NCBI GenBank assembly: GCA_945860295.1
Contig: CAMAQH010000011.1
Coordinates: forward strand, 59,442-123,441
Source: Prosthecobacter debontii
Lineage (GTDB): Bacteria; Verrucomicrobiota; Verrucomicrobiia; Verrucomicrobiales; Verrucomicrobiaceae
Direction of reading: 5' to 3'
DNA: 64,000 bases
Shown here piece by piece: positions 1-10,601 of the stretch. The notes under the pieces are model-generated. The model had not been told where the DNA came from. It ran no database searches and was given only the letters and a program-made list of their open reading frames with translations. How positions within the stretch are numbered: position 1 is the first letter of the stretch; every line of letters starts with the position of its first letter. The position numbers and the translations under genes are program-made.

Positions 1-1128
1 CGCGCTGCGTTGCTCTGGTGTGGTGACGACTCGCCGGCCATGCGTGACACCTTCAAAGGCGGCACGGAGTCGGTAGTAATCCTCGGTGGGGATAGGATCA
101 AACTTGTGATCGTGGCAGCGGGCGCAGTTGATAGTTAGGCCGAGAAAGGCTCCGCAGGTGGCGGTGATCATGTCGTCGATGGTTGCTGCGCGGATGTTTT
201 TCTGCGCGACGACATCGCCATTTCCCACATCATCATAAGGCCCAGCGACGAGGAAGGCGCTGCCGACTTCGATCTCGGGTTTGTCTTTGCCGATGACATC
301 ACCCGCGAGGTGCTCGGCGATAAACTGATTGAAGGGTTTGTCGTCGTTGATGGATTTAATGACGTAGTCGCGAAAGGGATAGAGGTCGTCGATGACGAAG
401 TTTCTCTCAAAGCCATTGGACTCCCCAAAGCGGACGACGTCCAGCCAATGACGGCCCCAGCGTTCTCCGTAGCGGGGTGAGGCGAGGAGTCGGTCGATGA
501 GGTCCTTATTAGCTCGTGTGTTGGTTTGGCGGTCCTTCACGAAAGTTTCAACCTCCTCCGGTGATGGCGGGAGACCATGCAAATCATAAGTCACTCGACG
601 AATGAAGGTGCGTGGGTCAGTGGGCGGACTGAAATCGAGGCCTTTTTCTTTGAGCTTGGTGGCGATGAAGTCGTCGATACTGCCTGCGGTCTTGAGGTCA
701 GTTTTATTGCGTTGGAGGGACCACCAGGATTTGTCGCCGCGCTTCGCTTCGATCTTCACGCCATCACGGGGATCGGGTGCTCCCATTTTGATCCATGTGA
801 CGAGATCGGCGATGACCGCATCTGGCAACTTGGGTTTCTTTGGCGGCATCTCCATGTCGGCTTCGAGATGCTGCACGGTGCGGATGAGCAGGCTGGCTTC
901 CGGCTTGCCAGGGACGATGATCGGATCGCCACTGTCGCCGCCTTTTTCCCAGCCTGCTTTGGAGTCGAGGTAGAGATTGCCTTTGAGCTTCTTCGCCTCG
1001 GCGCTGTGACAGGAATAACAGTGCTCCACCAACACAGGCCGCACCTTTTGTTCAAAGAAAGCGATGCCAGATGGATCGGCAGCTAGGACGGTGGAGGAGA
1101 GGAGGAGAGTGAGAGCGAGGGCTTTCAT
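1..1128 (-). CDS. PSCyt1/DUF1549 protein, N-terminal 376 residues (runs off window start)
   Basis: The reading frame is open from the ATG at 1128 to base 1, so only the N-terminal part is in the window. It begins with a signal peptide (hydrophobic residues 4-16, cut near VLA-ADP). A haem-binding CYSCH motif (C37, C40, H41) lies in the planctomycete-type cytochrome domain, followed by MPPKKPKLPD. The DUF1549 segment contains RYGERWGRHWLDVVRFGES and a second haem motif, CARCHDHKF (C335, C338, H339). Complete relatives are 800-1000 residues and end in DUF1553. It lies 3 bases downstream of the DUF1501 gene, the reverse of the usual PSCyt-then-DUF1501 order. Export and haem binding are inferred from motifs; the biochemical role of the family is unknown. 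Confidence 0.9.
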   Translation of the reverse strand, partial: MKALALTLLLSSTVLAADPSGIAFFEQKVRPVLVEHCYSCHSAEAKKLKGNLYLDSKAGWEKGGDSGDPIIVPGKPEASLLIRTVQHLEADMEMPPKKPKLPDAVIADLVTWIKMGAPDPRDGVKIEAKRGDKSWWSLQRNKTDLKTAGSIDDFIATKLKEKGLDFSPPTDPRTFIRRVTYDLHGLPPSPEEVETFVKDRQTNTRANKDLIDRLLASPRYGERWGRHWLDVVRFGESNGFERNFVIDDLYPFRDYVIKSINDDKPFNQFIAEHLAGDVIGKDKPEIEVGSAFLVAGPYDDVGNGDVVAQKNIRAATIDDMITATCGAFLGLTINCARCHDHKFDPIPTEDYYRLRAAFEGVTHGRRVVTTPEQRSA

Positions 1129-1131
1129 GGC

Positions 1132-2523
1132 TCAAGCGAGAATGTTCTGAATCACATGTCCATGCACATCCGTGAGGCGGCGGTTGGCGCCGTTGTGGTA
1201 GTAGGTGAGCTTTTCGTGATTGAGCCCGAGGAGATGAAGGACGGTGGCGTAGAAATCATAGACCGTGGCAATATCGACGGCAGCGCGGCGGCCAAAGTCG
1301 TCTGTCTCACCATAGCTCACGCCGCCTTTCACACCCGCGCCCATCATCCAAGTGGTGAAGGCGTCGGGGTTGTGATCGCGGCCGCTGGTGCCGTCTTGAT
1401 GTGTGGGCATGCGGCCAAACTCGGTGCACCAGATGATGAGCACGTCGTTTAACATGCCTCGCTGTTTCATATCGGTGAGCAGTGCTGCAGTGGGTTGATC
1501 AAAGATGGGGCAATGGCGCTCGTAGTCAGCCTTCAGCGTTTTATGCGCGTCCCAATTGAGCAGGCCATCGACGGCGCTAGCGCGTGAAGCGCAGTAAAGG
1601 CTGACATAGCGCACGCCTTGTTCTAGGAAGCGGCGGGCGAGTAGGCAATTTTTGGCATACGCGGCCTTGAGTTTGTTGCTGTCGTTGGTGCCGTAGAGGT
1701 CTTGGATGTGTTGGGGTTCACGCGAGAGGTCGCTGACTTCAGGCGCGGTCAGTTGCATCTTGGCGGCGAGTTCATAGGCGGCCATCCGAGCGCGGAGTTC
1801 GTCATTTTCAGCGTGAGCGGCGGCGTGCTCAGTATTGATGAGCTTTAAAAAATCACGCGTGGCTTTCTCAGTACCCACGGAGATCGAGGCGGGCCGAGCG
1901 AGATTGCGCAGTGGCTGCTGGGCAGCCATGGAGATGCCTTGATACTCGGCAGAGAGGAAGCCGTTGCTCCAATTGGCTTTGCCATTCGGTGGTTCACCGC
2001 GCAGGTCCTGAATGGAGATGTAGGTGGGCAATTTATCATTCAGACTGCCGAGACCGTAACTGACCCACGAGCCTGCGCTCGGGAAGCCATCACGGGTGAA
2101 GCAGGAGTTCATATTCACACAGCCCGGACCATGCGTGTTGGTGCGACTGGTCATGCTGTGAATGAAGGCCATGTCATCGGCATGACGCGCCAAGTGCGGC
2201 AGCATGGAGGTCATCATTTTGCCAGACTGACCCGCTGGCAGAAAGTCCCAGGGCGGCCGCATCAAATTGCCGTTCTTACCCTGGAATGTGACCTCGGCCG
2301 CGCCAGGAAGTGGCGTGCCATGATACTTCTCCAGCATCGGTTTGTGATCCCAGAGATCGACATGCGATGCTGCGCCTGGACAGAAGATTTGCAGCACTTG
2401 TTTAGCCTTCGGTGCAAAGTGCGGCTGATGCTTCGGGGCATCCGCCATGAGGCGAGAAAGAGCCACACCCGTGAGTCCGGTGGACATCTGACTGAGAAAT
2501 TGGCGACGTTGGAGAAGGTTCAT
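1132..2523 (-). CDS. DUF1501 family Tat-exported protein
   Basis: 463-residue protein of the DUF1501 family, a group related to the alkaline phosphatase/sulfatase superfamily whose substrate is unknown. The N-terminus carries a twin-arginine signal (QRRQFLSQ at residues 5-12, then a short hydrophobic stretch). Family blocks seen are HVDLWDHKPMLEKYHG, GSWVSYGLGS and EFGRMPTHQDGTSGRDHNP. It ends with the typical short tail HVIQNILA. Its ATG overlaps the stop of the upstream GntR gene (ATGA), which suggests translational coupling, and the PSCyt gene follows 3 bases downstream. The context places it at the end of a sugar catabolic operon. Family assignment is firm; function is not known. Confidence 0.93.
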   Translation of the reverse strand: MNLLQRRQFLSQMSTGLTGVALSRLMADAPKHQPHFAPKAKQVLQIFCPGAASHVDLWDHKPMLEKYHGTPLPGAAEVTFQGKNGNLMRPPWDFLPAGQSGKMMTSMLPHLARHADDMAFIHSMTSRTNTHGPGCVNMNSCFTRDGFPSAGSWVSYGLGSLNDKLPTYISIQDLRGEPPNGKANWSNGFLSAEYQGISMAAQQPLRNLARPASISVGTEKATRDFLKLINTEHAAAHAENDELRARMAAYELAAKMQLTAPEVSDLSREPQHIQDLYGTNDSNKLKAAYAKNCLLARRFLEQGVRYVSLYCASRASAVDGLLNWDAHKTLKADYERHCPIFDQPTAALLTDMKQRGMLNDVLIIWCTEFGRMPTHQDGTSGRDHNPDAFTTWMMGAGVKGGVSYGETDDFGRRAAVDIATVYDFYATVLHLLGLNHEKLTYYHNGANRRLTDVHGHVIQNILA

Positions 2524-3212
2524 GATTGAGCGACCTTTCGATTTTTGAGGCCCAAATCGTTACGGGCATTGAGGAGATGCTTCCTCATGGCTGTAGCAGC
2601 GGCACTGCCATTGCGGGACATGATAGCCGTGAGAATTTTGCTATGATCGGCAACGGCCTTGTCTTTCGTGACTAGGCGATAGCCGTGGCTAAGGCTGGTC
2701 TGCAAAAGATCAGAAAGTGACTGCATCAAGAGCGCTCCGATTTTATTCCCCGAAACATCGGCGATGAGGCAGTGGAACTCCATGTCGGCGAGAACCTGTG
2801 TCTCAAAGTCCAGGCAGTTTTTGAGGCGTTCGTGAGCAGCTTTGAGTTGCCTGAGTTCGATGGCGGAGGCTCGTTCAGCGGCGAGTCGTGCGTTTTCGGG
2901 TTCGAGGGCGAAGCGGACTTCGGTGAGTTGGACGAGGCGCTGCTTTTCATCGGGCACGAGCATGTGGACCGCGCTACTCAGTGGCTTGTGAAGTTTGTCC
3001 ACGACCTTCATGCCGCTGCCCTGGCGGATTTCGAGCAGGCCTTGGAGTTCGAGACGTTTCGCGGCTTCGCGAATGACACTGCGGCTGACGCCGAACTGGG
3101 CGGACATGTCACGCTCGGTCGGCAGGCGGTCGGTGGTGTGAGCGCGTGCCAGTGTGATGATGCGGCGGCTCACAGCATCAACAAGAGAGGGTGATTGGGC
3201 GGTGACAAGCAT
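2520..3212 (-). CDS. GntR family regulator, FadR/FCD subfamily
   Basis: 230-residue transcription factor. Residues about 8-75 form a winged helix-turn-helix (LPTERDMSAQFGVSRSVIRE, then LLEIRQGSGMKVVD). The rest is an all-helical FCD ligand-binding domain (EPENARLAAERASAIELRQL, MEFHCLIADVSGN), which in this family binds small carboxylates or sugar acids, often through a metal held by histidines. It sits inside the operon, 71 bases downstream of the PfkB kinase, and its stop overlaps the DUF1501 start. It probably controls this operon in response to a pathway intermediate; that is inference from position. Confidence 0.93.
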   Translation of the reverse strand: MLVTAQSPSLVDAVSRRIITLARAHTTDRLPTERDMSAQFGVSRSVIREAAKRLELQGLLEIRQGSGMKVVDKLHKPLSSAVHMLVPDEKQRLVQLTEVRFALEPENARLAAERASAIELRQLKAAHERLKNCLDFETQVLADMEFHCLIADVSGNKIGALLMQSLSDLLQTSLSHGYRLVTKDKAVADHSKILTAIMSRNGSAAATAMRKHLLNARNDLGLKNRKVAQS

Positions 3213-3283
3213 GGCGATAATTGGTCAGACCAATTTGGATTGAAGCAAATACGACAAGGTTTGTTTTCTTCTATCTACTGAAC

Positions 3284-4288
3284 TCAGCGGAAGCCAAAGG
3301 CATCTGCGAGCGCTAGACATTCGCGCACGGGCTTCATGCCGCCGGAGGGTGTGGGATGGGATAGCGATGCGGCGGCAGTGCAGACAGCGAGGCGGAGTCG
3401 ATCTGCGAGCGGCCAGCCTTCATGCAAAGCATAGAGCAATCCTGCGGCGAAGGCGTCCCCGGCACCGGTGGCACCTTGGCTGTAGCCTGATGGAAGCAGT
3501 AGTGATGGCTGGAAGTGCTCGTCATTTTCGCGAGTGCAGGCAGCGGCTCCGTGCTCGGTGTGAATGGTGACGGTTTGACGAACGCCAAGCGCCAGCAGAT
3601 CACGCGAGGCGGTGAGAAGTGCGGGGCCATCGTTTGAAGAGATGGTGCGATTCAGCACACGCGAGGCTTCGATCTCATTGATGATGAGATGATCGGTGTG
3701 CGGCATGGCGCTGAGAGCGATGTCTCGAAACTGCGGATGCTCGGTGCTCACCATGTCCACGCTGGTTTGTAGTCCCGCTTGTGTGGCGGTTGCTAACAAA
3801 TGAGCAGCGTGAGTGCGACCGTCGGCGGCGAAGCTGTCCATGTGATCGAGCAGCATGAGGTAGCCAAGATGCAGGATGCGTGCGCGGGTCTGGCTGACAT
3901 CGCAATGACTCTCATTGAAGAGCGCATTGGCTCCGCGCTGATGGAAAAAGGTGCGTCTGCCAGTGCTCTGCACCGTCATGGCATCGGTGTAGGATGTGGA
4001 GCGTTCAAGGCTGAGATGAAGCTGCGCGGCATCTATGCCATGAACCTCGCAGTCCTGGCGAATCCAGCGCCCATTGGCGTCATCGCCGACGAGTCCACAG
4101 GCTGCGAGCGGGAAACCTGCCTGCATCGCAGACAGGTCTTTGAGCACATTGTAAGGGCCGCCGCCGTTGGCCTGCGACTCGCTCAGGATGCTGGCCAGCA
4201 TGTCCTGCTCGGGATACGCGTCGATGATCTTCACGTAATCCACGATGAAGTTGCCTGCGGCTAGAATGCCAGAGCGCTGCGTGCTCAT
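3284..4288 (-). CDS. PfkB family carbohydrate kinase
   Basis: 334-residue ribokinase-family sugar kinase. The C-terminal PfkB signature GATGAGDAFAAGL is present with the catalytic Asp at residue 278, and the N-terminal substrate region has NGGGPYNVLKDL (residues 41-52). The length is normal. It would phosphorylate a free sugar or sugar derivative with ATP. It lies 5 bases after the Gfo/Idh gene and shares an operon with an isomerase-like protein and an aldolase, so the expected logic is isomerise, phosphorylate, cleave. The substrate cannot be read from the sequence. Confidence 0.93.
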   Translation of the reverse strand: MSTQRSGILAAGNFIVDYVKIIDAYPEQDMLASILSESQANGGGPYNVLKDLSAMQAGFPLAACGLVGDDANGRWIRQDCEVHGIDAAQLHLSLERSTSYTDAMTVQSTGRRTFFHQRGANALFNESHCDVSQTRARILHLGYLMLLDHMDSFAADGRTHAAHLLATATQAGLQTSVDMVSTEHPQFRDIALSAMPHTDHLIINEIEASRVLNRTISSNDGPALLTASRDLLALGVRQTVTIHTEHGAAACTRENDEHFQPSLLLPSGYSQGATGAGDAFAAGLLYALHEGWPLADRLRLAVCTAAASLSHPTPSGGMKPVRECLALADAFGFR

Positions 4289-4293
4289 GAACG

Positions 4294-5415
4294 TCAGAGT
4301 GAGATGACGGAACCCGTGCGTTGCGACTCCAGAGCGGCAGCGAATATCTCATGCGTGGCGACGGCTTCCTCAGGTGTGGCGCAGCCGAAGCGGCCTCCGA
4401 GTTCGCCTGCTCGCTCCATGAGATAGGCGGCCCACATTTGCTGGATCACATCAGGGAAGCCAGGCTCGAAGATGCCGCCGGTCACGGTTTTGAAAGGCGT
4501 GCCGAAACCCAGCTCGGTGCGCTTCCACCACTGCTCTTTGCCACGCTCGAAGATCCATAGTGTCTTTGGCTCAGCGGTGCTGAAACGCACGCCGCCGTCG
4601 GTGCCGAGTATCTCGATGAACCAGGTGTTGGTAGCACCAGGAGCGAGACGTTTCATTTCAAGGCGCAATGGCACTTCGTGATCGGCGATGGTTGTCCAGC
4701 TATGGAGCATGGCATTGTCCCAGGTATCGCAGTTAGTGATGCCGCCTTTGCCATCTGGGCGCTGCGGATAGCCTTTCTGAAGCTGGGCAAAAAGACGAGT
4801 CGGTTTCCAACCAAGGCGCAGTGGCACATGGCAGGCGTGCATGCCGAGGTCGTTGAGCGCACCGCCTTCACCGCAGGTGGCATTGAGACGTTTCCAGTTC
4901 GCGGCTTTCGTGGCATCGAGATCACTGCTGTGATGGAAGCCTGAGACGACTTCCAGGACACGGCCAATTTCACCTTTGCGGGCGATTTCAAAAGCACGCT
5001 GAGCGCCAGGGAAAAAGGGCATCTCGGAACTGCAACGCACGAATTGCCCGCTGGACTTCACGGCGTCGAGAATGCGACGAGCAGAAGGCAGATCAATGCC
5101 GAAGGGCTTCTCAGCGAAGAGGTCTTTGCCAGCAGTAAGCACGTCGAGATATAGCTTCTCATGCAGGTTATGCGGCACGGCGACATAAACGACATCGACC
5201 TCTGGATTGGCGAGCAGCTCTTTGTAGTCGGTGGTCTTCTGCGTGCAGGACGGGATGCAATCAAACCACGAAAGCGTGGCTGGATTCAAATCCGCGACGG
5301 AGACGAGAATGGGACGCACGGTGACGTCCACGAGAGCGCACCAGCGCGCAAAGGCGCTGGCCATTTCGCGGCCCATGAGACCACCGCCGATAATGCCGAT
5401 GCGGATGTCTTTCAT
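4294..5415 (-). CDS. Gfo/Idh/MocA family oxidoreductase (cytoplasmic)
   Basis: 373-residue NAD(P)-dependent sugar dehydrogenase. The N-terminus has the Rossmann motif IGIIGGGLMGREMA (residues 7-20), and the family motif AEKPFGIDLPSA contains the conserved catalytic-site lysine. The C-terminal half is the alpha/beta substrate domain (EGGALNDLGMHACHV). There is no signal peptide, unlike the other two Gfo/Idh proteins in the window. Its ATG overlaps the aldolase stop (ATGA). It probably oxidises a sugar, polyol or inositol-like compound that feeds the same pathway as its neighbours; the substrate is unknown. Confidence 0.92.
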   Translation of the reverse strand: MKDIRIGIIGGGLMGREMASAFARWCALVDVTVRPILVSVADLNPATLSWFDCIPSCTQKTTDYKELLANPEVDVVYVAVPHNLHEKLYLDVLTAGKDLFAEKPFGIDLPSARRILDAVKSSGQFVRCSSEMPFFPGAQRAFEIARKGEIGRVLEVVSGFHHSSDLDATKAANWKRLNATCGEGGALNDLGMHACHVPLRLGWKPTRLFAQLQKGYPQRPDGKGGITNCDTWDNAMLHSWTTIADHEVPLRLEMKRLAPGATNTWFIEILGTDGGVRFSTAEPKTLWIFERGKEQWWKRTELGFGTPFKTVTGGIFEPGFPDVIQQMWAAYLMERAGELGGRFGCATPEEAVATHEIFAAALESQRTGSVISL

Positions 5416-6245
5416 TTCGTAACGAGTTTGAGAGCTGTCTTCACGCTGGCACCGTCATGCACCATCGCCATGAGGGCGCGGGTGATGCCTTTCGGGTTCG
5501 GATGCTGGATGACATTGCGGCCATACACGATTCCCGCTGCGCCTTGAGCCAGCAGGCCTTCGGTGCGTTCCAGGATTTCTTTGTCGCTCACACGACCACC
5601 GCCACGAACGAGCACGGGGATGCCAGAAGCTGCGGCGATGACTTTGTGATAAATGCTCACGTCATCGGTGGGATCAGCCTTCACGATGTCGGCACCGAGT
5701 TCCACGGCCTGACGCACGAGATAGGTGATCGCGGTTTCATCGCCATTGACCATGTAGCCACCGGCTTTTTCATTCGGCTGGAAGACGAGCGGTTCGATCA
5801 TCATGGGCATACCATAATAGTCGGCCTGAGGCTTGAGGCGGAGGATGTTTTCCACGCACTGCTCATGCACTTCAGGCGCACCGGGGATCTGGAAGAGATT
5901 CACGCAGACGCAGGCGGCGTCGTAGCGCACGGCTTGCAGCATCGTCTCCTCGATCATCAGGCTGAAGCGGCTTTCAGGCAGTTCTTTGCCATAGATGTTG
6001 GCGACGTCTGTGCGCAGGACGAGGCTGGGCTTGAAGCGTCCAGGAATCTCCTGGAGATGACGCGCCATGCCAAGCGTGAGCTGGATGGCATCAGGCGCTG
6101 CTTCCACGAGAGTTTTGACCACGCTACGCATGTCTTCAATGCCGGTGAGGAATCCAGGCTGATTGAAGAAGCCATGATCGACGGCGACATCGAAGCAGCG
6201 GTTGGATTTGGCGTTGAAGAGACGGTTGAGACGATACTGTTTCAT
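5412..6245 (-). CDS. Class I aldolase, DeoC/FbaB/LsrF type
   Basis: 277-residue TIM-barrel aldolase related to class I fructose-bisphosphate aldolase FbaB and to LsrF. The family start DVAVDHGFF lies at residues 19-27. Lys189 in ADIVKADPTDD fits the Schiff-base lysine, and the phosphate-binding end of the barrel is PVLVRGGGRVSD followed by GAAGIVYGRNVIQHPNP. It would cleave a phosphorylated sugar or deoxysugar by a Schiff-base mechanism. It is the second gene of the operon, 21 bases after the isomerase-like gene, and overlaps the next gene by 4 bases. The exact substrate is undetermined. Confidence 0.88.
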   Translation of the reverse strand: MKQYRLNRLFNAKSNRCFDVAVDHGFFNQPGFLTGIEDMRSVVKTLVEAAPDAIQLTLGMARHLQEIPGRFKPSLVLRTDVANIYGKELPESRFSLMIEETMLQAVRYDAACVCVNLFQIPGAPEVHEQCVENILRLKPQADYYGMPMMIEPLVFQPNEKAGGYMVNGDETAITYLVRQAVELGADIVKADPTDDVSIYHKVIAAASGIPVLVRGGGRVSDKEILERTEGLLAQGAAGIVYGRNVIQHPNPKGITRALMAMVHDGASVKTALKLVTK

Positions 6246-6266
6246 GAGGGTGCGACGGTTAGATGG

Positions 6267-7310
6267 TTACTTGATGCCCATCAAGTGCTTGAGGATGTAG
6301 AGTTCGAGCGCCTCATAGTCGCGGGCGTCGCGGAACTGCTGCACGAGTTTTTCGTCGGTGGTGCGGACTTTCTCCACGAGATGCTGGAAGATCTCGCGAC
6401 TGCCGGTGAGGTGCGCGGTGACGCATTTGCCCTTCTGAGTGCGCATGGCCTTCACGTCGAGGCCGATGAACTCGCCCTTCTTGCCGTAGCCAGCTTCTTC
6501 AAGCACACGCACTTGATTGTAAGCGGTGCGCAGATTGGCTCCGCCGAAGTTCTTGTCCTGATCATACTTGAGGCCGTTCTGATCGTTGAGATGGACACTG
6601 CCGAGTTTGTCGTGAGCGAGTGCGAAGGCCATTTCATCGCTCGGATCGAGGCCTGCGAGCAGGGCGTGGGCGGTCTCGATGAGACCCTTTACGCGATTGG
6701 GATCACTAGAGGCATAGGCGAGCGCGATGGTGTGGCCGATGGTTGGCACATAGGCCATGTCGGTGGGTTCATTCGGCTTCGGCTCGATCCAGATCTCGAT
6801 GTCTTTGTCATGGGCGAGCATGGCATTGATCGTCTCAAGGATGCGCTGATAGGCGAGCCGTGCATTTTTGCTCTCGCGGATGTAGCTGCCTTCGCGTGCT
6901 AGCCAGAGCACCACCGCTTTACTGCCGATCTCGCGGGCGATGTCGATGGTGCGCAGGGTGCGGTCGAGCGCATACTTGCGGTCTTTGGCGCTGTTTGAGG
7001 TATAGCCGCCATCGACGGTCTGAGGAGCGAACCAGAGACGAGGCGCGACGAACTCGGGAGTGAGGCCTTGGTTGTCGAGCATCTTCTTCACCTTGGCTGC
7101 TTGTTTGGAAACTTGCGCAGGAGTCAGGTCGTCGATTCCAGGGACGACATCATCGTCATGGAACTGCACGCCATCGAAGCCCATGGGCTTGTACAAAGCG
7201 TACTTCTTTTCATGGGGGAAGGCTGGGCGGACTTCAGGGCCGAAGGGGTCGGCTCCTTCGCTGATGTTCCAAGGTCCAAAGGAGAAGCGGTAGGTGGTTG
7301 GTTTGCTCAT
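6267..7310 (-). CDS. Xylose-isomerase-like TIM-barrel sugar isomerase
   Basis: 347 residues, similar in layout to class I (actinobacterial-type) xylose isomerase but about 40 residues shorter. Active-site equivalents visible are FHDDD (H51, D54), the diagnostic EPKPNEP (E176, K178), IETAH (E212, H215), KYDQD (D250, D252) and LDVKAMRT (D285). Where xylose isomerase has HIDLNGQNG, this protein has HLNDQNG, two residues shorter, so the usual Asp metal ligand there is replaced or shifted (N242/D243). It is the first gene of the operon and is divergent from an AraC-type regulator. It is probably an aldose/ketose isomerase, but not necessarily for xylose. Confidence 0.82.
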   Translation of the reverse strand: MSKPTTYRFSFGPWNISEGADPFGPEVRPAFPHEKKYALYKPMGFDGVQFHDDDVVPGIDDLTPAQVSKQAAKVKKMLDNQGLTPEFVAPRLWFAPQTVDGGYTSNSAKDRKYALDRTLRTIDIAREIGSKAVVLWLAREGSYIRESKNARLAYQRILETINAMLAHDKDIEIWIEPKPNEPTDMAYVPTIGHTIALAYASSDPNRVKGLIETAHALLAGLDPSDEMAFALAHDKLGSVHLNDQNGLKYDQDKNFGGANLRTAYNQVRVLEEAGYGKKGEFIGLDVKAMRTQKGKCVTAHLTGSREIFQHLVEKVRTTDEKLVQQFRDARDYEALELYILKHLMGIK

Positions 7311-7316
7311 ACGACC

Positions 7317-7322
7317 ATTCTA
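7317..7322 (-). promoter_or_regulatory. Candidate -10 hexamer just upstream of the isomerase-like gene
   Basis: On the minus strand TAGAAT (five of six matches to TATAAT, within TATAGAAT) ends six bases before the ATG at 7310. No ribosome binding site is visible. If it works as a -10 element, transcription would begin at or next to the start codon. There is no convincing -35 at 17 bases. Confidence 0.3.
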
Positions 7323-7425
7323 TACTCATCACGAATCTACTTTGCTACGCCTCTAGTCTCTGAGGCTGCGACTATTGTCTCAATCATCACTGGCCTTGAC
7401 GGGCATCCGTGTTACGAAAGTGGTC

Positions 7426-8346
7426 ATGCGTGTAGAGCGTGAGAAAATTCAGATTCCGAGCGGGCATTCCTTTCGAGTGCTGCGCTGGGCGCGCTCGATT
7501 CGGGATGTGGAGTGCGTGATGGCTCCGGGAAAGATGGAGAAAATCACAGGCGAAGGCACGCGCTGGCATTTCCATGTGGAGATGGAATTGACACTTTTTA
7601 CGGAGGGAAATGGGACGCGCTTCGTGGGTGATCACATCGGCTCGTTTGAGGGCGGTGACCTCGTCTTGCTCGGCAGCAGGCTGCCCCACTACTGGCACAC
7701 GCGGGGGAACTCAGGCGGCATCTCGGTGCAGTGGCATTTCCCGGAGGGACATCCGTTCTGGGCTTTTCCTGAGAATCTGGCGTTGCTGGAATTGTTCGAG
7801 CGCGCAGGGCGTGGACTGCGACTGAGTGGATCGACGGCGACGCGAATTTCAGCTCTACTTCATGAGATGATGCAGGCGCAGGGCGTGGAGCAACTCGCGC
7901 TATTGCTGCGCACACTGGCGATGATCGCAGCGGCTCCTGAGGCGGAGCGGACCTTTCTTTCCGTGCGCTCTTTTACTCTGGCTGCGGAGTTACACTACCA
8001 GCAGTCGATCTCAAAAGCGATGCGGCATTTGATCGCGCATTTTCGGGAAGAGGTCAGGCTAGAGGATGTGCTAGTGCTCACCGATCTGAGCCGACCCACC
8101 TTTGCGCGGCAGTTCAAAAAACATGCAGGGCGGACGATGAGCGAGTTTTTGAATCGCCTGCGACTCCAGGCCGCCTGTCGGGAACTTTTGGAAAGTGAGC
8201 GCGGCGTGTTGGAGATCGCGATGGGCTGTGGTTTTACACAAGTCTCGTTTTTTAATCGACTGTTTCGGCGTCTGCAAAAATGCAGTCCCACGGAATATCG
8301 AACCCGCCGGGGACGTGAGAAAGGGAAGCGCCGATCGGCATTTTGA
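7426..8346 (+). CDS. AraC family transcriptional regulator
   Basis: 306 residues from the ATG at 7426; a TTG at 7375 would add 17 residues, but the ATG is preferred with a weak GAAAG upstream. The N-terminal half looks like a cupin sensor ([39 protein letters not shown]). The C-terminal 100 residues hold the two helix-turn-helix units of AraC/XylS proteins ([20 protein letters not shown], and [19 protein letters not shown]). It is transcribed away from the isomerase-led operon, the classical arrangement for a local sugar-responsive activator. The effector is unknown. Confidence 0.92.
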
Positions 8347-8393
8347 TGGGTCTGGGCGGCGGCGGGAGACGTTGCTTCTTTTTAGCGGCAGGT

Positions 8394-8422
8394 TTGACAA
8401 TGTCTGCCGTCACTCCTTGATT
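8394..8422 (+). promoter_or_regulatory. Candidate promoter for clpP
   Basis: TTGACA (8394-8399) is a perfect -35, followed by a 17-base spacer and TTGATT (8417-8422), a poor -10. The -10 ends only six bases before the clpP ATG and no Shine-Dalgarno sequence is present, so the transcript could be leaderless. Confidence 0.35.
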
Positions 8423-8428
8423 ACCACT

Positions 8429-9079
8429 ATGTCCCAATCCTCCTCCGATTTCCCCACCATGATTTCTCCGCCCTCTAACTTCATCGTCCCAATGGTGATC
8501 GAGAGCGAGGGGCGCATGGAGCGCTCCTATGATATCTATTCACGTCTGCTGAAGGATCGCATCATCTTCCTCGGCAGTGATGTGAATGATCAGGTGGCTA
8601 ATGTCATCATCGCCCAGTTCCTCTTCCTCCAGATGCAGGACCCGAAGAAAGATATTCATTTCTACATCAACAGCCCCGGTGGCTCGGTGACCGCAGGTTT
8701 GGCGATCTATGACACGATGCAGTTCGTGACTTGTGATGTGAATACCTACTGTATCGGCATCTGCGCCAGCATGGGCGCGGTGCTACTGGCCGCTGGCACG
8801 AAGGGCAAACGTTTCGCTCTGCCAAACAGCGACATCATGATCCATCAAGTCTCGGGTGGTGCTCGCGGAACCGCGAGTGATGTGGAGCGCACTGTGGACT
8901 TCATGTACAAACTGAAGCGCCGGTTGAATCGCATCCTCGCCCATCATTGCGGCAAGACGCCTGAAGTGATCGAAAAAGACGCTGACCGTGACAACTACAT
9001 GAGCGCCGAAGAAGCTGCTGCTTACGGGCTGGTGGATAAGGTGCTGGTGAGCAATCGCGATCTCGCGGCGAAAGAGTAG
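8429..9079 (+). CDS. clpP: ATP-dependent Clp protease proteolytic subunit
   Basis: 216-residue ClpP starting at the ATG at 8429 (the frame is open further upstream, overlapping the araC-type gene, but homology starts here). The catalytic triad is complete with normal spacing: Ser114 in [12 protein letters not shown], His139 in [10 protein letters not shown], Asp188 in [11 protein letters not shown]. Substrate-channel motifs [13 protein letters not shown] are present. It forms the tetradecameric cytoplasmic protease chamber with ClpA/ClpX-type unfoldases. No clpX or tig gene is adjacent, unlike many bacteria. A strong terminator follows 19 bases after the stop. Confidence 0.97.
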
Positions 9080-9149: not shown

Positions 9150-10601
9150 CTAGGCAAAGACATCCATCACTGCCTTTCCCTTTCCATCCTCAGTGACATA
9201 AAAAGGGCGGCCTTCGATACTGAACTCGGTCTTGGGACTGATGCCCATGGCGGTCATGATAGTGGCGTGGAGATCCATGACGGAGACGGGGTTCTTGGTC
9301 GCAATGAGTGGCCTTTCATCGGCGGTTTCTCCATAGAGATGGCCTTTTTTTACACCGCCGCCGAACATGACGACGCTGGTGCCACCGGTGAAGTGGCGAT
9401 GCAATCCGTAGTGTTTCATTTCAGTCAGCGCATCGACTTTGAAGGTGGTCTGATCATTGGCGTTGGAGCCAGGCTTACCCTCCATGAGCGCGTCTCGGCT
9501 GAACTCGCTGGCGATGACGATGAGCGTGCGATCCAGTAGCCCTTTCGCCTCTAAATCCCGCACGAGTTGTGAGATCGGTAGGTCGATCTCTTTGTGCAAG
9601 GCTTCGATCGTCGTGTGGCCGTCCTTGTGCGTGTCCCATTGGAAGAAGGGCACATACTCAGTGGTGACTTCGACGAAGCGCGTGCCGGCTTCAATCAACC
9701 TGCGAGCGAGCAAACAACCGCGACCAAAACGTCCGGTATCATACTTTGCGTAGCTCTCTTTGGGTTCGAGGGTGATGTCGAAGGCTTCGCGCTCTTTGGC
9801 GCTCAGGAGCCGATACGCATTGTCCATGCTGCGCAGCATGGACTGCTGCTGGTAGTCGCTCATGAGCTCACGATTCGGGCTTTGATCGACGAGCTTGCGG
9901 AGGAGCTTGTCACGATTGGCAAAGCGCTGCGCATCCATGCCTTTTGGTGGCTTCACGGACTGCGCGGCTTCTTCTGGGTAGGGCAGATTCATCGGTCCAA
10001 ACTCACTGCCGAAAAATCCGGCAGTGGTGAATGCCTTCAGCTCCTCGCTCTCGCCCACGCCTTCCAATCGCTGGCCGATGTTGATGAAGGGTGGCATCAC
10101 CGTGTTGCGCGGACCGAGCACTTTCGCCATCCATGCGCCGATGTGCGGACAGGCGACGGTTTGCGGCGGCACGTATCCCGTGTGCCAGTGATACTGATGG
10201 CGACTGTGCAAGATGCTGCCGAGATCTGGCTGCACGGCGCTGCGGATGAGTGTGCCACGATCCATCACTTGGGCGATGTTTTCCAGGCCTTGGCAAATCT
10301 TGATGCCATCCACGGCTGTGTTAATCGCGGGGAAAGTGCTGAGCATCTTTTTCACTTCGAGCCCCTTTTCAAAAGGCAGGTAGCCTTTGGGATCAAAGGT
10401 GTCTGGTGCTGCCATGCCGCCTGCCATCCAGAGCAGGATGCAGGCGTCTGCTTTTGCAGGAGGATGCGTCACCGCCTCACCCGTCTTGGCCCAGATCGCT
10501 CGCGGCTCGCCCGTCATCCACGCCGCCGTGCTAGCGGCTGCGAGTTTTTTGATGAAGTCGCGGCGGACGATGTGCTCTGGCAGTGAAGGGTCGATTTCCA
10601 T
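9150..10601 (-). CDS. DUF1501 family Tat-exported protein, solitary
   Basis: 483 residues. The twin-arginine signal is VRRDFIKKLAAASTAAW at residues 12-28. Family blocks include ILLWMAGGMAAPDTFDPKGY, SRHQYHWHTGY, GRGCLLARRLIEAG and VIASEFSRDALMEG. The last differs from the usual EFGRTP motif, so this belongs to a separate subfamily from the other DUF1501 proteins here. It has no PSCyt partner next to it and is convergent with clpP. Its function is unknown; export by the Tat pathway is inferred. Confidence 0.92.
   Translation of the reverse strand: MEIDPSLPEHIVRRDFIKKLAAASTAAWMTGEPRAIWAKTGEAVTHPPAKADACILLWMAGGMAAPDTFDPKGYLPFEKGLEVKKMLSTFPAINTAVDGIKICQGLENIAQVMDRGTLIRSAVQPDLGSILHSRHQYHWHTGYVPPQTVACPHIGAWMAKVLGPRNTVMPPFINIGQRLEGVGESEELKAFTTAGFFGSEFGPMNLPYPEEAAQSVKPPKGMDAQRFANRDKLLRKLVDQSPNRELMSDYQQQSMLRSMDNAYRLLSAKEREAFDITLEPKESYAKYDTGRFGRGCLLARRLIEAGTRFVEVTTEYVPFFQWDTHKDGHTTIEALHKEIDLPISQLVRDLEAKGLLDRTLIVIASEFSRDALMEGKPGSNANDQTTFKVDALTEMKHYGLHRHFTGGTSVVMFGGGVKKGHLYGETADERPLIATKNPVSVMDLHATIMTAMGISPKTEFSIEGRPFYVTEDGKGKAVMDVFA

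What the first reader, a model, noticed from the sequence alone, without database searches (positions are those of the whole stretch)
1..7310. Isomerase/aldolase/dehydrogenase/kinase operon ending in a DUF1501/PSCyt pair
Seen: seven same-strand genes with short gaps or ATGA overlaps. Known: isomerase plus PfkB kinase plus class I aldolase is the logic of several sugar pathways, including the sulfo-EMP route (isomerase, kinase, aldolase, dehydrogenase). Inferred: this is a catabolic pathway for an unidentified sugar, with a surface DUF1501/PSCyt pair as a dedicated partner. The local GntR and divergent AraC regulators would make it a fully self-contained locus. The xylose-isomerase homologue is not of the usual AGE type used in sulfoglycolysis, so the substrate may be new.
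Basis: partly seen in the sequence, partly recalled or inferred. Interest (0 to 1): 0.7.

Follow-up and report, generated by a model that had tools for sequence, protein, structure and literature searches.

The report
Sugar-splitting operon beside a GntR cassette
Across many Verrucomicrobiota species a xylose-isomerase-like gene sits in a recurring cluster with aldolase, dehydrogenase and kinase genes that likely splits an unidentified sugar into two pieces, while the DUF1501/cytochrome genes beside it belong to a GntR-headed gene set that also occurs away from that cluster in related genomes.

Summary
In detail: seven minus-strand genes, gaps 21, -4, 5, 71, -4, 3 bp; the run continues past the window edge. 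It is two modules. (1) Enzymes: a XylA-type isomerase (XylL), DhnA/LsrF class I aldolase, Gfo/Idh/MocA dehydrogenase and PfkB kinase, with divergent AraC. XylL differs from XylA at fixed active-site positions (81 of 81). DhnA follows XylL in 51 of 78 testable loci. GlcD/GlcF 2-hydroxyacid dehydrogenase lies in 31/25 of 80 loci, a lactate-racemase homologue in 2 of 80. Inferred route: aldose, ketose, ketose-1-phosphate, then DHAP plus a hydroxyaldehyde, most likely lactaldehyde from a 6-deoxyhexose; the substrate is unproven. (2) A GntR-DUF1501-PSCyt cassette with an operator-like palindrome before gntR (11 of 12 gntR loci), found away from XylL in G018 and G024 and in G031, where no XylL was found. 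So DUF1501/PSCyt is not shown to be a dedicated partner. DUF1501 is predicted to have an alkaline-phosphatase/sulfatase fold; this genome has at least 77 copies.

The parts
6267..7310 (-). XylL: xylose-isomerase-type TIM barrel, predicted aldose-ketose isomerase of a distinct subfamily (His240 where XylA has Asp245; Pro90-Arg91-Leu92-Trp93)
5412..6245 (-). DhnA/LsrF-type class I aldolase; predicted Schiff-base Lys189, Glu151 where MJ0400 has Tyr
   Evidence: MJ0400 105 bits; K189 and E151 in 53 of 53
4294..5415 (-). Gfo/Idh/MocA dehydrogenase; among named kin, levoglucosan and L-glucose dehydrogenases score best
3284..4288 (-). PfkB-family sugar kinase (best solved match: YdjH)
3219..3235 (.). 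17-bp palindrome AATTGGTNNNACCAATT, predicted GntR operator 6 bp before the gntR start codon
   Evidence: 1 found, 0.05 expected in the window; TGGTNNNACCA before gntR in 11 of 12 loci
2520..3212 (-). GntR/FCD regulator, head of the DUF1501/PSCyt cassette
1132..2523 (-). DUF1501 protein; RR motif near the N-terminus; predicted alkaline-phosphatase/sulfatase superfamily fold
1..1128 (-). PSCyt1-PSCyt2 protein, 5' part only; 954 aa on the contig
7375..8346 (+). Divergent AraC-family regulator (start may be ATG 7426)
   Evidence: divergent AraC within 3.2 kb of XylL in 39 of 73 loci

Best explanation
The locus is two modules side by side: an enzyme set (XylA-type isomerase, class I aldolase, Gfo/Idh/MocA dehydrogenase, PfkB kinase) that likely turns an unidentified sugar into DHAP plus a small hydroxyaldehyde, and a GntR-DUF1501-PSCyt cassette preceded by a predicted GntR operator. 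Inferred route: Gfo oxidises a glycoside or sugar, probably reversibly at C3, to release the free aldose. XylL isomerises the aldose to a ketose by a two-metal XylA-type hydride shift. PfkB phosphorylates the ketose at O1. DhnA (Lys189 Schiff base, Glu151 acid/base) splits the ketose-1-phosphate into DHAP and a 2-hydroxyaldehyde. An aldehyde dehydrogenase encoded elsewhere makes the 2-hydroxyacid, which GlcD/GlcF oxidises to a 2-oxoacid. Because a lactate-racemase homologue takes the GlcDF place in two relatives, the acid is most likely lactate and the sugar a 6-deoxyhexose. The cassette likely acts in the periplasm and is transcribed, at least in part, under its own GntR.
Against: No substrate, product or activity was measured. 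LarA is in only 2 of 80 loci. GlcD's best solved relative is a glycolate oxidase, with a lactate dehydrogenase close behind (333 and 326 bits), which fits a pentose equally well. DhnA occurs at 86-95% identity in congeners where no XylL orthologue was found, GlcD at 71-74% likewise, so neither is exclusive to this pathway. DhnA-Gfo-PfkB occurs without adjacent XylL in L040, L042, L045, L055 and L063. 27 of 78 XylL loci have no adjacent DhnA; in the second fetch L231 and L237 have no DhnA match. No aldehyde dehydrogenase or transporter is among the seven genes. GntR and AraC binding are untested. In the own genome the motif is hardly enriched over its reversed control (7 against 5; 3 to 13 against 1 to 7 in the other seven genomes), so its conserved position is what counts. 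No terminator was seen in the pfkB-gntR gap (read by eye), so read-through into the cassette is possible here. Non-core genes in XylL runs are enriched in DUF1501/PSCyt (16 of 98 against 21 of 443, p 2e-4, relatedness not controlled), which favours some functional link.
Confidence: 0.5

Rival explanations
1. The sugar is a pentose: a ketopentose-1-phosphate is split to DHAP and glycolaldehyde, which becomes glycolate and then glyoxylate through GlcDF.
For: XylL is closest to xylose isomerase; GlcD scores 514 bits to the GlcD model and 333 bits to a solved glycolate oxidase; kinase hits include ketohexokinase.
Against: A racemase homologue in the GlcDF place (2 of 80) makes no sense for achiral glycolate; the own genome has a second protein in a 450-aa frame with 26% identity to XylL, perhaps the true XylA (not tested); GlcD is below its model cut-off (514 of 568).
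Confidence: 0.22
2. XylL and Gfo work on 3-keto sugars made from glycosides, and kinase and aldolase are a separate branch.
For: Subfamily-2 XylL is followed by a Gfo-type gene in 10 of 20 loci, and in 5 of 20 also by a relative of 2-hydroxy-3-keto-glucal hydratase; the c21 Gfo next to XylL in L135 matches glycoside 3-dehydrogenase below its cut-off (256 of 750 bits); DhnA-Gfo-PfkB occurs without XylL in five loci.
Against: XylL proper sits mainly with aldolase, and often with kinase; three subfamily-2 loci have a PfkB-cluster gene instead.
Confidence: 0.13
3. Sulfo-EMP variant: sulfoquinovose is isomerised, phosphorylated and split to DHAP and sulfolactaldehyde, Gfo being an oxidoreductive sulfoquinovosidase (GH188-like).
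For: Same enzyme logic; invariant Arg91 in XylL could bind an anionic group (inference); Gfo has a weak hit to the GH188 structure 8qc2 (35 bits).
Against: Isomerase is not of the YihS type; 8qc2 is far down the Gfo list, below an L-glucose dehydrogenase at 79 bits; no sulfolactaldehyde dehydrogenase or reductase among the seven genes; YihV hit only 24.8 bits.
Confidence: 0.06
4. One reading: one catabolic locus in which DUF1501/PSCyt is the dedicated surface partner of the enzymes.
For: Co-directional, with 4-bp overlap and 3-bp gap within the cassette; enrichment 16 of 98 against 21 of 443; different DUF1501/PSCyt pairs attached to XylL runs in other lineages.
Against: Cassette away from XylL in two genomes and in one where no XylL was found, own operator-like site; 77 or more DUF1501 genes in the genome; 11 of 80 loci only.
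Confidence: 0.09

Closest known systems
Class I xylose (glucose) isomerase XylA, TIGR02631
   Different: Asp245 replaced by His; Thr90 to Phe94 region now Pro-Arg-Leu-Trp; 199 bits against a cut-off of 447; sits with aldolase and PfkB kinase
Sulfoglycolytic EMP pathway (yih genes; Arthrobacter variant)
   Same: Isomerase, kinase, aldolase, dehydrogenase; the Arthrobacter clusters also hold a Gfo/IolG homologue (PMC8873060, passages read)
   Different: Isomerase family differs; no sulfolactaldehyde dehydrogenase or reductase and no identified sulfoquinovosidase among the seven genes
L-fucose/L-rhamnose degradation by microcompartments in Planctomycetota/Verrucomicrobiota
   Same: Isomerase, kinase, aldolase to DHAP and lactaldehyde, then lactate (PMC8857213, passages read)
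   Different: No shell-protein gene among the seven; aldolase is DhnA-type, not AraD-like; kinase PfkB, not RhaB; RhaA not found in the own genome
DUF1501 + PSCyt genes of PVC bacteria (He et al. 2017, PMC5615132, passages read)
   Same: PSCyt/PSD domains; the paper says PSCyt2 genes usually lie next to an unknown gene family and that nothing is known of their function (DUF1501 is not named in the main text)
   Different: Here headed by a GntR gene with a conserved operator-like palindrome, and DUF1501 predicted to have the alkaline-phosphatase/sulfatase fold

Membership tests
Xylose isomerase (XylA) | XylA TIM-barrel fold | tested here: met
   Predicted model
Xylose isomerase (XylA) | All metal ligands of XylA (Glu181, Glu217, His220, Asp245, Asp255, Asp257, Asp287; numbering recalled) | tested here: not met
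   Asp245 is His240 in 81 of 81; the others kept
Xylose isomerase (XylA) | Score over the NCBIfam equivalog cut-off | tested here: not met
   199.3 of 447 bits
DhnA/LsrF class I aldolase | DeoC/LacD domain with Schiff-base lysine | tested here: met
   PF01791 122 bits; K189 in 53 of 53; its role as Schiff base is by alignment
Sulfo-EMP pathway | YihS-type (AGE) isomerase | tested here: not met
   Isomerase is PF01261, XylA-like
Sulfo-EMP pathway | Sulfolactaldehyde reductase or dehydrogenase in the cluster | tested here: not met
   None among the seven genes
GH188 sulfoquinovosidase (Gfo fold) | Sulfonate-binding Arg166/Lys172 (PMC11465081) | not tested
   8qc2 hit is weak and its alignment was not printed
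myo-Inositol catabolism (iol) | IolB and IolD with IolG/IolC/IolE-like genes | tested here: not met
   No such domain among the seven genes; rest of the genome not searched
L-rhamnose pathway | RhaA in the genome | tested here: not met
   PF06134 in 1 of 56 genomes, not in G000
L-fucose pathway | Fucose isomerase in the genome | tested here: inconclusive
   G000 has one weak PF02952 match, 33.4 bits over a cut-off of 29.3, in a 254-aa frame
PV-type microcompartment pathway | Shell proteins in the genome | not tested
   None among the seven genes; genome not searched
L-rhamnose pathway | Activity of XylL on L-rhamnose | not testable with these tools
   Needs enzyme assay
Alkaline-phosphatase superfamily (DUF1501) | Superfamily fold | tested here: met
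Alkaline-phosphatase superfamily (DUF1501) | Metal site and hydrolase activity | not testable with these tools
   Invariant Asp/His/Glu seen but not mapped on a metal site
FCD-type GntR regulator | GntR HTH plus FCD domain | tested here: met
   PF00392 and PF07729
FCD-type GntR regulator | Binds the palindrome before its own gene | not testable with these tools
   Conserved position only

The most novel reading that the evidence does not exclude
XylL founds a new branch of sugar isomerases in Verrucomicrobiota: with a glycoside-opening Gfo enzyme, a PfkB kinase and a class I aldolase it forms an undescribed pathway that burns 6-deoxyhexoses through DHAP plus lactate without using rhamnose isomerase, fucose isomerase or a microcompartment. 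Next to it, GntR-headed DUF1501/PSCyt cassettes are interchangeable periplasmic front ends that dock onto such sugar operons.
Probability: 0.22. Interest if true: 0.68.

Novelty: new variant of a known kind. Interest (0 to 1): 0.45.

Why it matters
A conserved sugar operon of Verrucomicrobiota, for which my searches listed no description, gives a short list of enzymes to assay and a testable substrate class. The operator-like site before gntR and the predicted phosphatase/sulfatase fold of DUF1501 give a handle on what regulates, and what might be done by, the DUF1501/PSCyt genes, of which this genome has dozens; He et al. 2017 state that nothing is known about the function of the PSCyt genes.

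Tried and rejected
myo-Inositol catabolism: rejected, no IolB or IolD domain among the seven genes. DhnA as the glycolytic aldolase: not required, class II aldolase in 53 of 56 genomes. SuyAB-type sulfolactate lyase: a GD_AH protein near XylL in L168 proved galactarate-dehydratase-like, with a MutT homologue between; dropped. A pooled scan of 105 of 249 candidate neighbour genes showed no transporter, glycoside-hydrolase or aldehyde-dehydrogenase family among the 25 families printed of 156; the other 144 genes were not scanned. The first gene caller missed DhnA in many loci because of long antisense ORFs; replaced; the last one still failed to call XylL in 7 of 80 loci, which were left out's run test. 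Promoter and terminator scan of 7250-7480 found nothing. Genome-wide count of the palindrome shows little enrichment in the own genome (7 against 5 reversed controls). A second aldolase idea: proteins of 4 of 80 loci (L135, L138, L161, L178) resemble DhnA only weakly (22.8 of 297 bits at best, none for L135), so a replacement aldolase is a guess. Paper searches: among the papers listed I saw none describing this operon or a fold for DUF1501; the library holds open-licence PMC papers only, one search found none and one search listed 12 of 528. Read: passages of PMC5615132, PMC8873060 and PMC8857213 and PMC11465081 up to its reference list; the others only as search listings.

Dependence: the 80 loci (best 80 of 122) and the G-genomes overlap (equal contig lengths show L105=G023, L106=G005, L107=G024, L111=G034, L115=G050, L151=G346, L171=G408), so the counts are not independent samples. 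The 20 subfamily-2 loci come from 18 genomes.
Full report
What is there. The window is bases 59442-123441 of contig 11 of a 4.68-Mb assembly; by XylL identity its nearest named relatives are Verrucomicrobiaceae MAGs, then Brevifollis and Prosthecobacter. The seven minus-strand genes of the finding are real, with gaps of 21, -4, 5, 71, -4 and 3 bp and the expected Pfam domains. The last gene is cut by the window edge; on the contig it is 954 aa and is followed by a second PSCyt gene and an FGE-sulfatase/BNR gene. A divergent AraC-type gene follows XylL at 7375-8346 (its start may be ATG 7426).

The operon in relatives. One genome-contig scan gave 122 relatives, of which the best 80 were returned, all 72% or more identical and by record title nearly all Verrucomicrobiota (a few carry doubtful bin names). 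DhnA follows XylL in 51 of 78 loci with room for it; a divergent AraC lies within 3.2 kb in 39 of 73; of 39 loci with more than 6.5 kb downstream, 22 have this Gfo (over 60% identity) and 13 PfkB. GlcD and GlcF homologues are in 31 and 25 of 80 loci (families), mostly between DhnA and Gfo; in the co-directional run itself I count 23 and 18 of the 73 loci with a called XylL. In L132 and L140 the same place holds a LarA homologue, 454 bits (L140) and 448 bits (L132) against a lactate-racemase cut-off of 460. A second fetch, partly the same genomes, holds 11 XylL-proper loci: the enzyme run is present in L232, L233, L234, L235, L238, L241 and L242, a divergent arrangement in L236 and L239, and no DhnA match in L231 and L237.

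Mechanism. Shown: families, order, conservation and predicted folds. Inferred: isomerisation, O1 phosphorylation, retro-aldol cleavage by Lys189 with Glu151 (both 53 of 53), DHAP plus hydroxyaldehyde, and oxidation through a 2-hydroxyacid. GlcDF and LarA in the same run are the reason for a 2-hydroxyacid; LarA is the reason to prefer a chiral one, lactate, and hence a 6-deoxyhexose. Against: LarA is in 2 of 80 loci only; GlcD resembles glycolate and lactate enzymes alike; DhnA (86-95%) and GlcD (71-74%) also occur in congeners where no XylL was found; DhnA-Gfo-PfkB occurs without adjacent XylL in five loci (L040, L042, L045, L055, L063); no aldehyde dehydrogenase or transporter is among the seven genes. 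The role of Gfo is the least certain: XylL subfamily 2 is followed by a Gfo-type gene in 10 of 20 loci, in 5 also by a further TIM-barrel gene whose L221 member matches 2-hydroxy-3-keto-glucal hydratase (174 bits; a structure of unknown function, 2zds, scores higher, 382). This suggests oxidoreductive release of a sugar from a glycoside. Three other subfamily-2 loci have a PfkB-cluster gene next to XylL (one scanned).

The second module. The 71-bp pfkB-gntR gap contains AATTGGTCTGACCAATT, 6 bp before the gntR ATG; one match to TTGGTNNNACCAA in the window against 0.05 expected. TGGTNNNACCA stands before gntR in 11 of 12 gntR loci examined (window, L102, L104, L106, L049, L058, L060, L242, L208, L209, L211; in L211 about 120 bp before a partial match whose start is uncertain). 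The twelfth, L210, has a degenerate form, and L103, where no gntR was found, keeps a half-site. Genome-wide the motif is not rare: 7 sites against 5 for the reversed control in the own genome, 3 to 13 against 1 to 7 in seven others; the evidence is its position. Of eight genomes searched, seven have a GntR relative at E 1e-15 or better: in the XylL run in G000, G005, G017 and G033, on other contigs in G018 and G024, and twice in G031, where no XylL orthologue was found (G031 is 78% complete). All four stand-alone copies have PSCyt downstream on the same strand and three have DUF1501 (the fourth nears its contig end). In the Brevifollis genome (L106 = L057) a GC-rich hairpin with T-run separates dhnA from gntR (read by eye).

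How special is the association? G000 has at least 77 DUF1501 genes (87 of 118 candidates scored), so a DUF1501 neighbour is cheap. Still, DUF1501/PSCyt make up 16 of 98 non-core genes in XylL runs against 21 of 443 outside (Fisher p 2e-4; relatedness not controlled, enzyme cores and AraC dropped before the count, 73 of 80 loci used), and more than one DUF1501 subclade is involved. Eleven of 80 loci have DUF1501 or PSCyt within 9 kb downstream on the same strand. The fair reading is recurrent docking, not an obligate partnership.

Known or new. The enzyme logic is that of sulfo-EMP and of the lactaldehyde-forming fucose/rhamnose routes, but for each at least one defining part was tested and not met (membership table). 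Ten searches of an open-licence library listed no paper on this operon that I recognised, which is weak evidence of absence. On re-checking this report I lowered several claims (exclusivity of the run, wording of absences) and left the odds as they were.

Noticed in passing
window 9150-10601 (-) and genome-wide: A second DUF1501 gene lies beyond a clpP-like ORF (8195-9079, named by eye); the own genome has at least 77 DUF1501 genes.
   Followed up: partly
L123, L129, L134, L139, L143 (divergent, just upstream of XylL); L135, L045, L239: Sulfatase genes recur beside the enzyme operon: one cluster in five of the 80 loci (L129 member scanned), others.
   Followed up: no
L057:4575-7248 (same genome as L106): In the Brevifollis cassette a beta-propeller protein and a chondroitinase-B-like protein lie between DUF1501 and PSCyt.
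   Followed up: no
L175:16981-19152 and L045:15960-18232: A phosphomannomutase/hexapeptide-repeat gene pair sits downstream of pfkB in two different loci.
   Followed up: no
G000:C22:14406-14418: A second TTGGTCAGACCAA identical to the gntR site lies on another contig of the own genome; its neighbours were not read.
   Followed up: no
L215, L216, L220: Subfamily-2 XylL is followed by a PfkB-cluster gene and, in L216 and L220, by a gene whose L220 member is mannitol-dehydrogenase-like, a possible polyol branch.
   Followed up: partly
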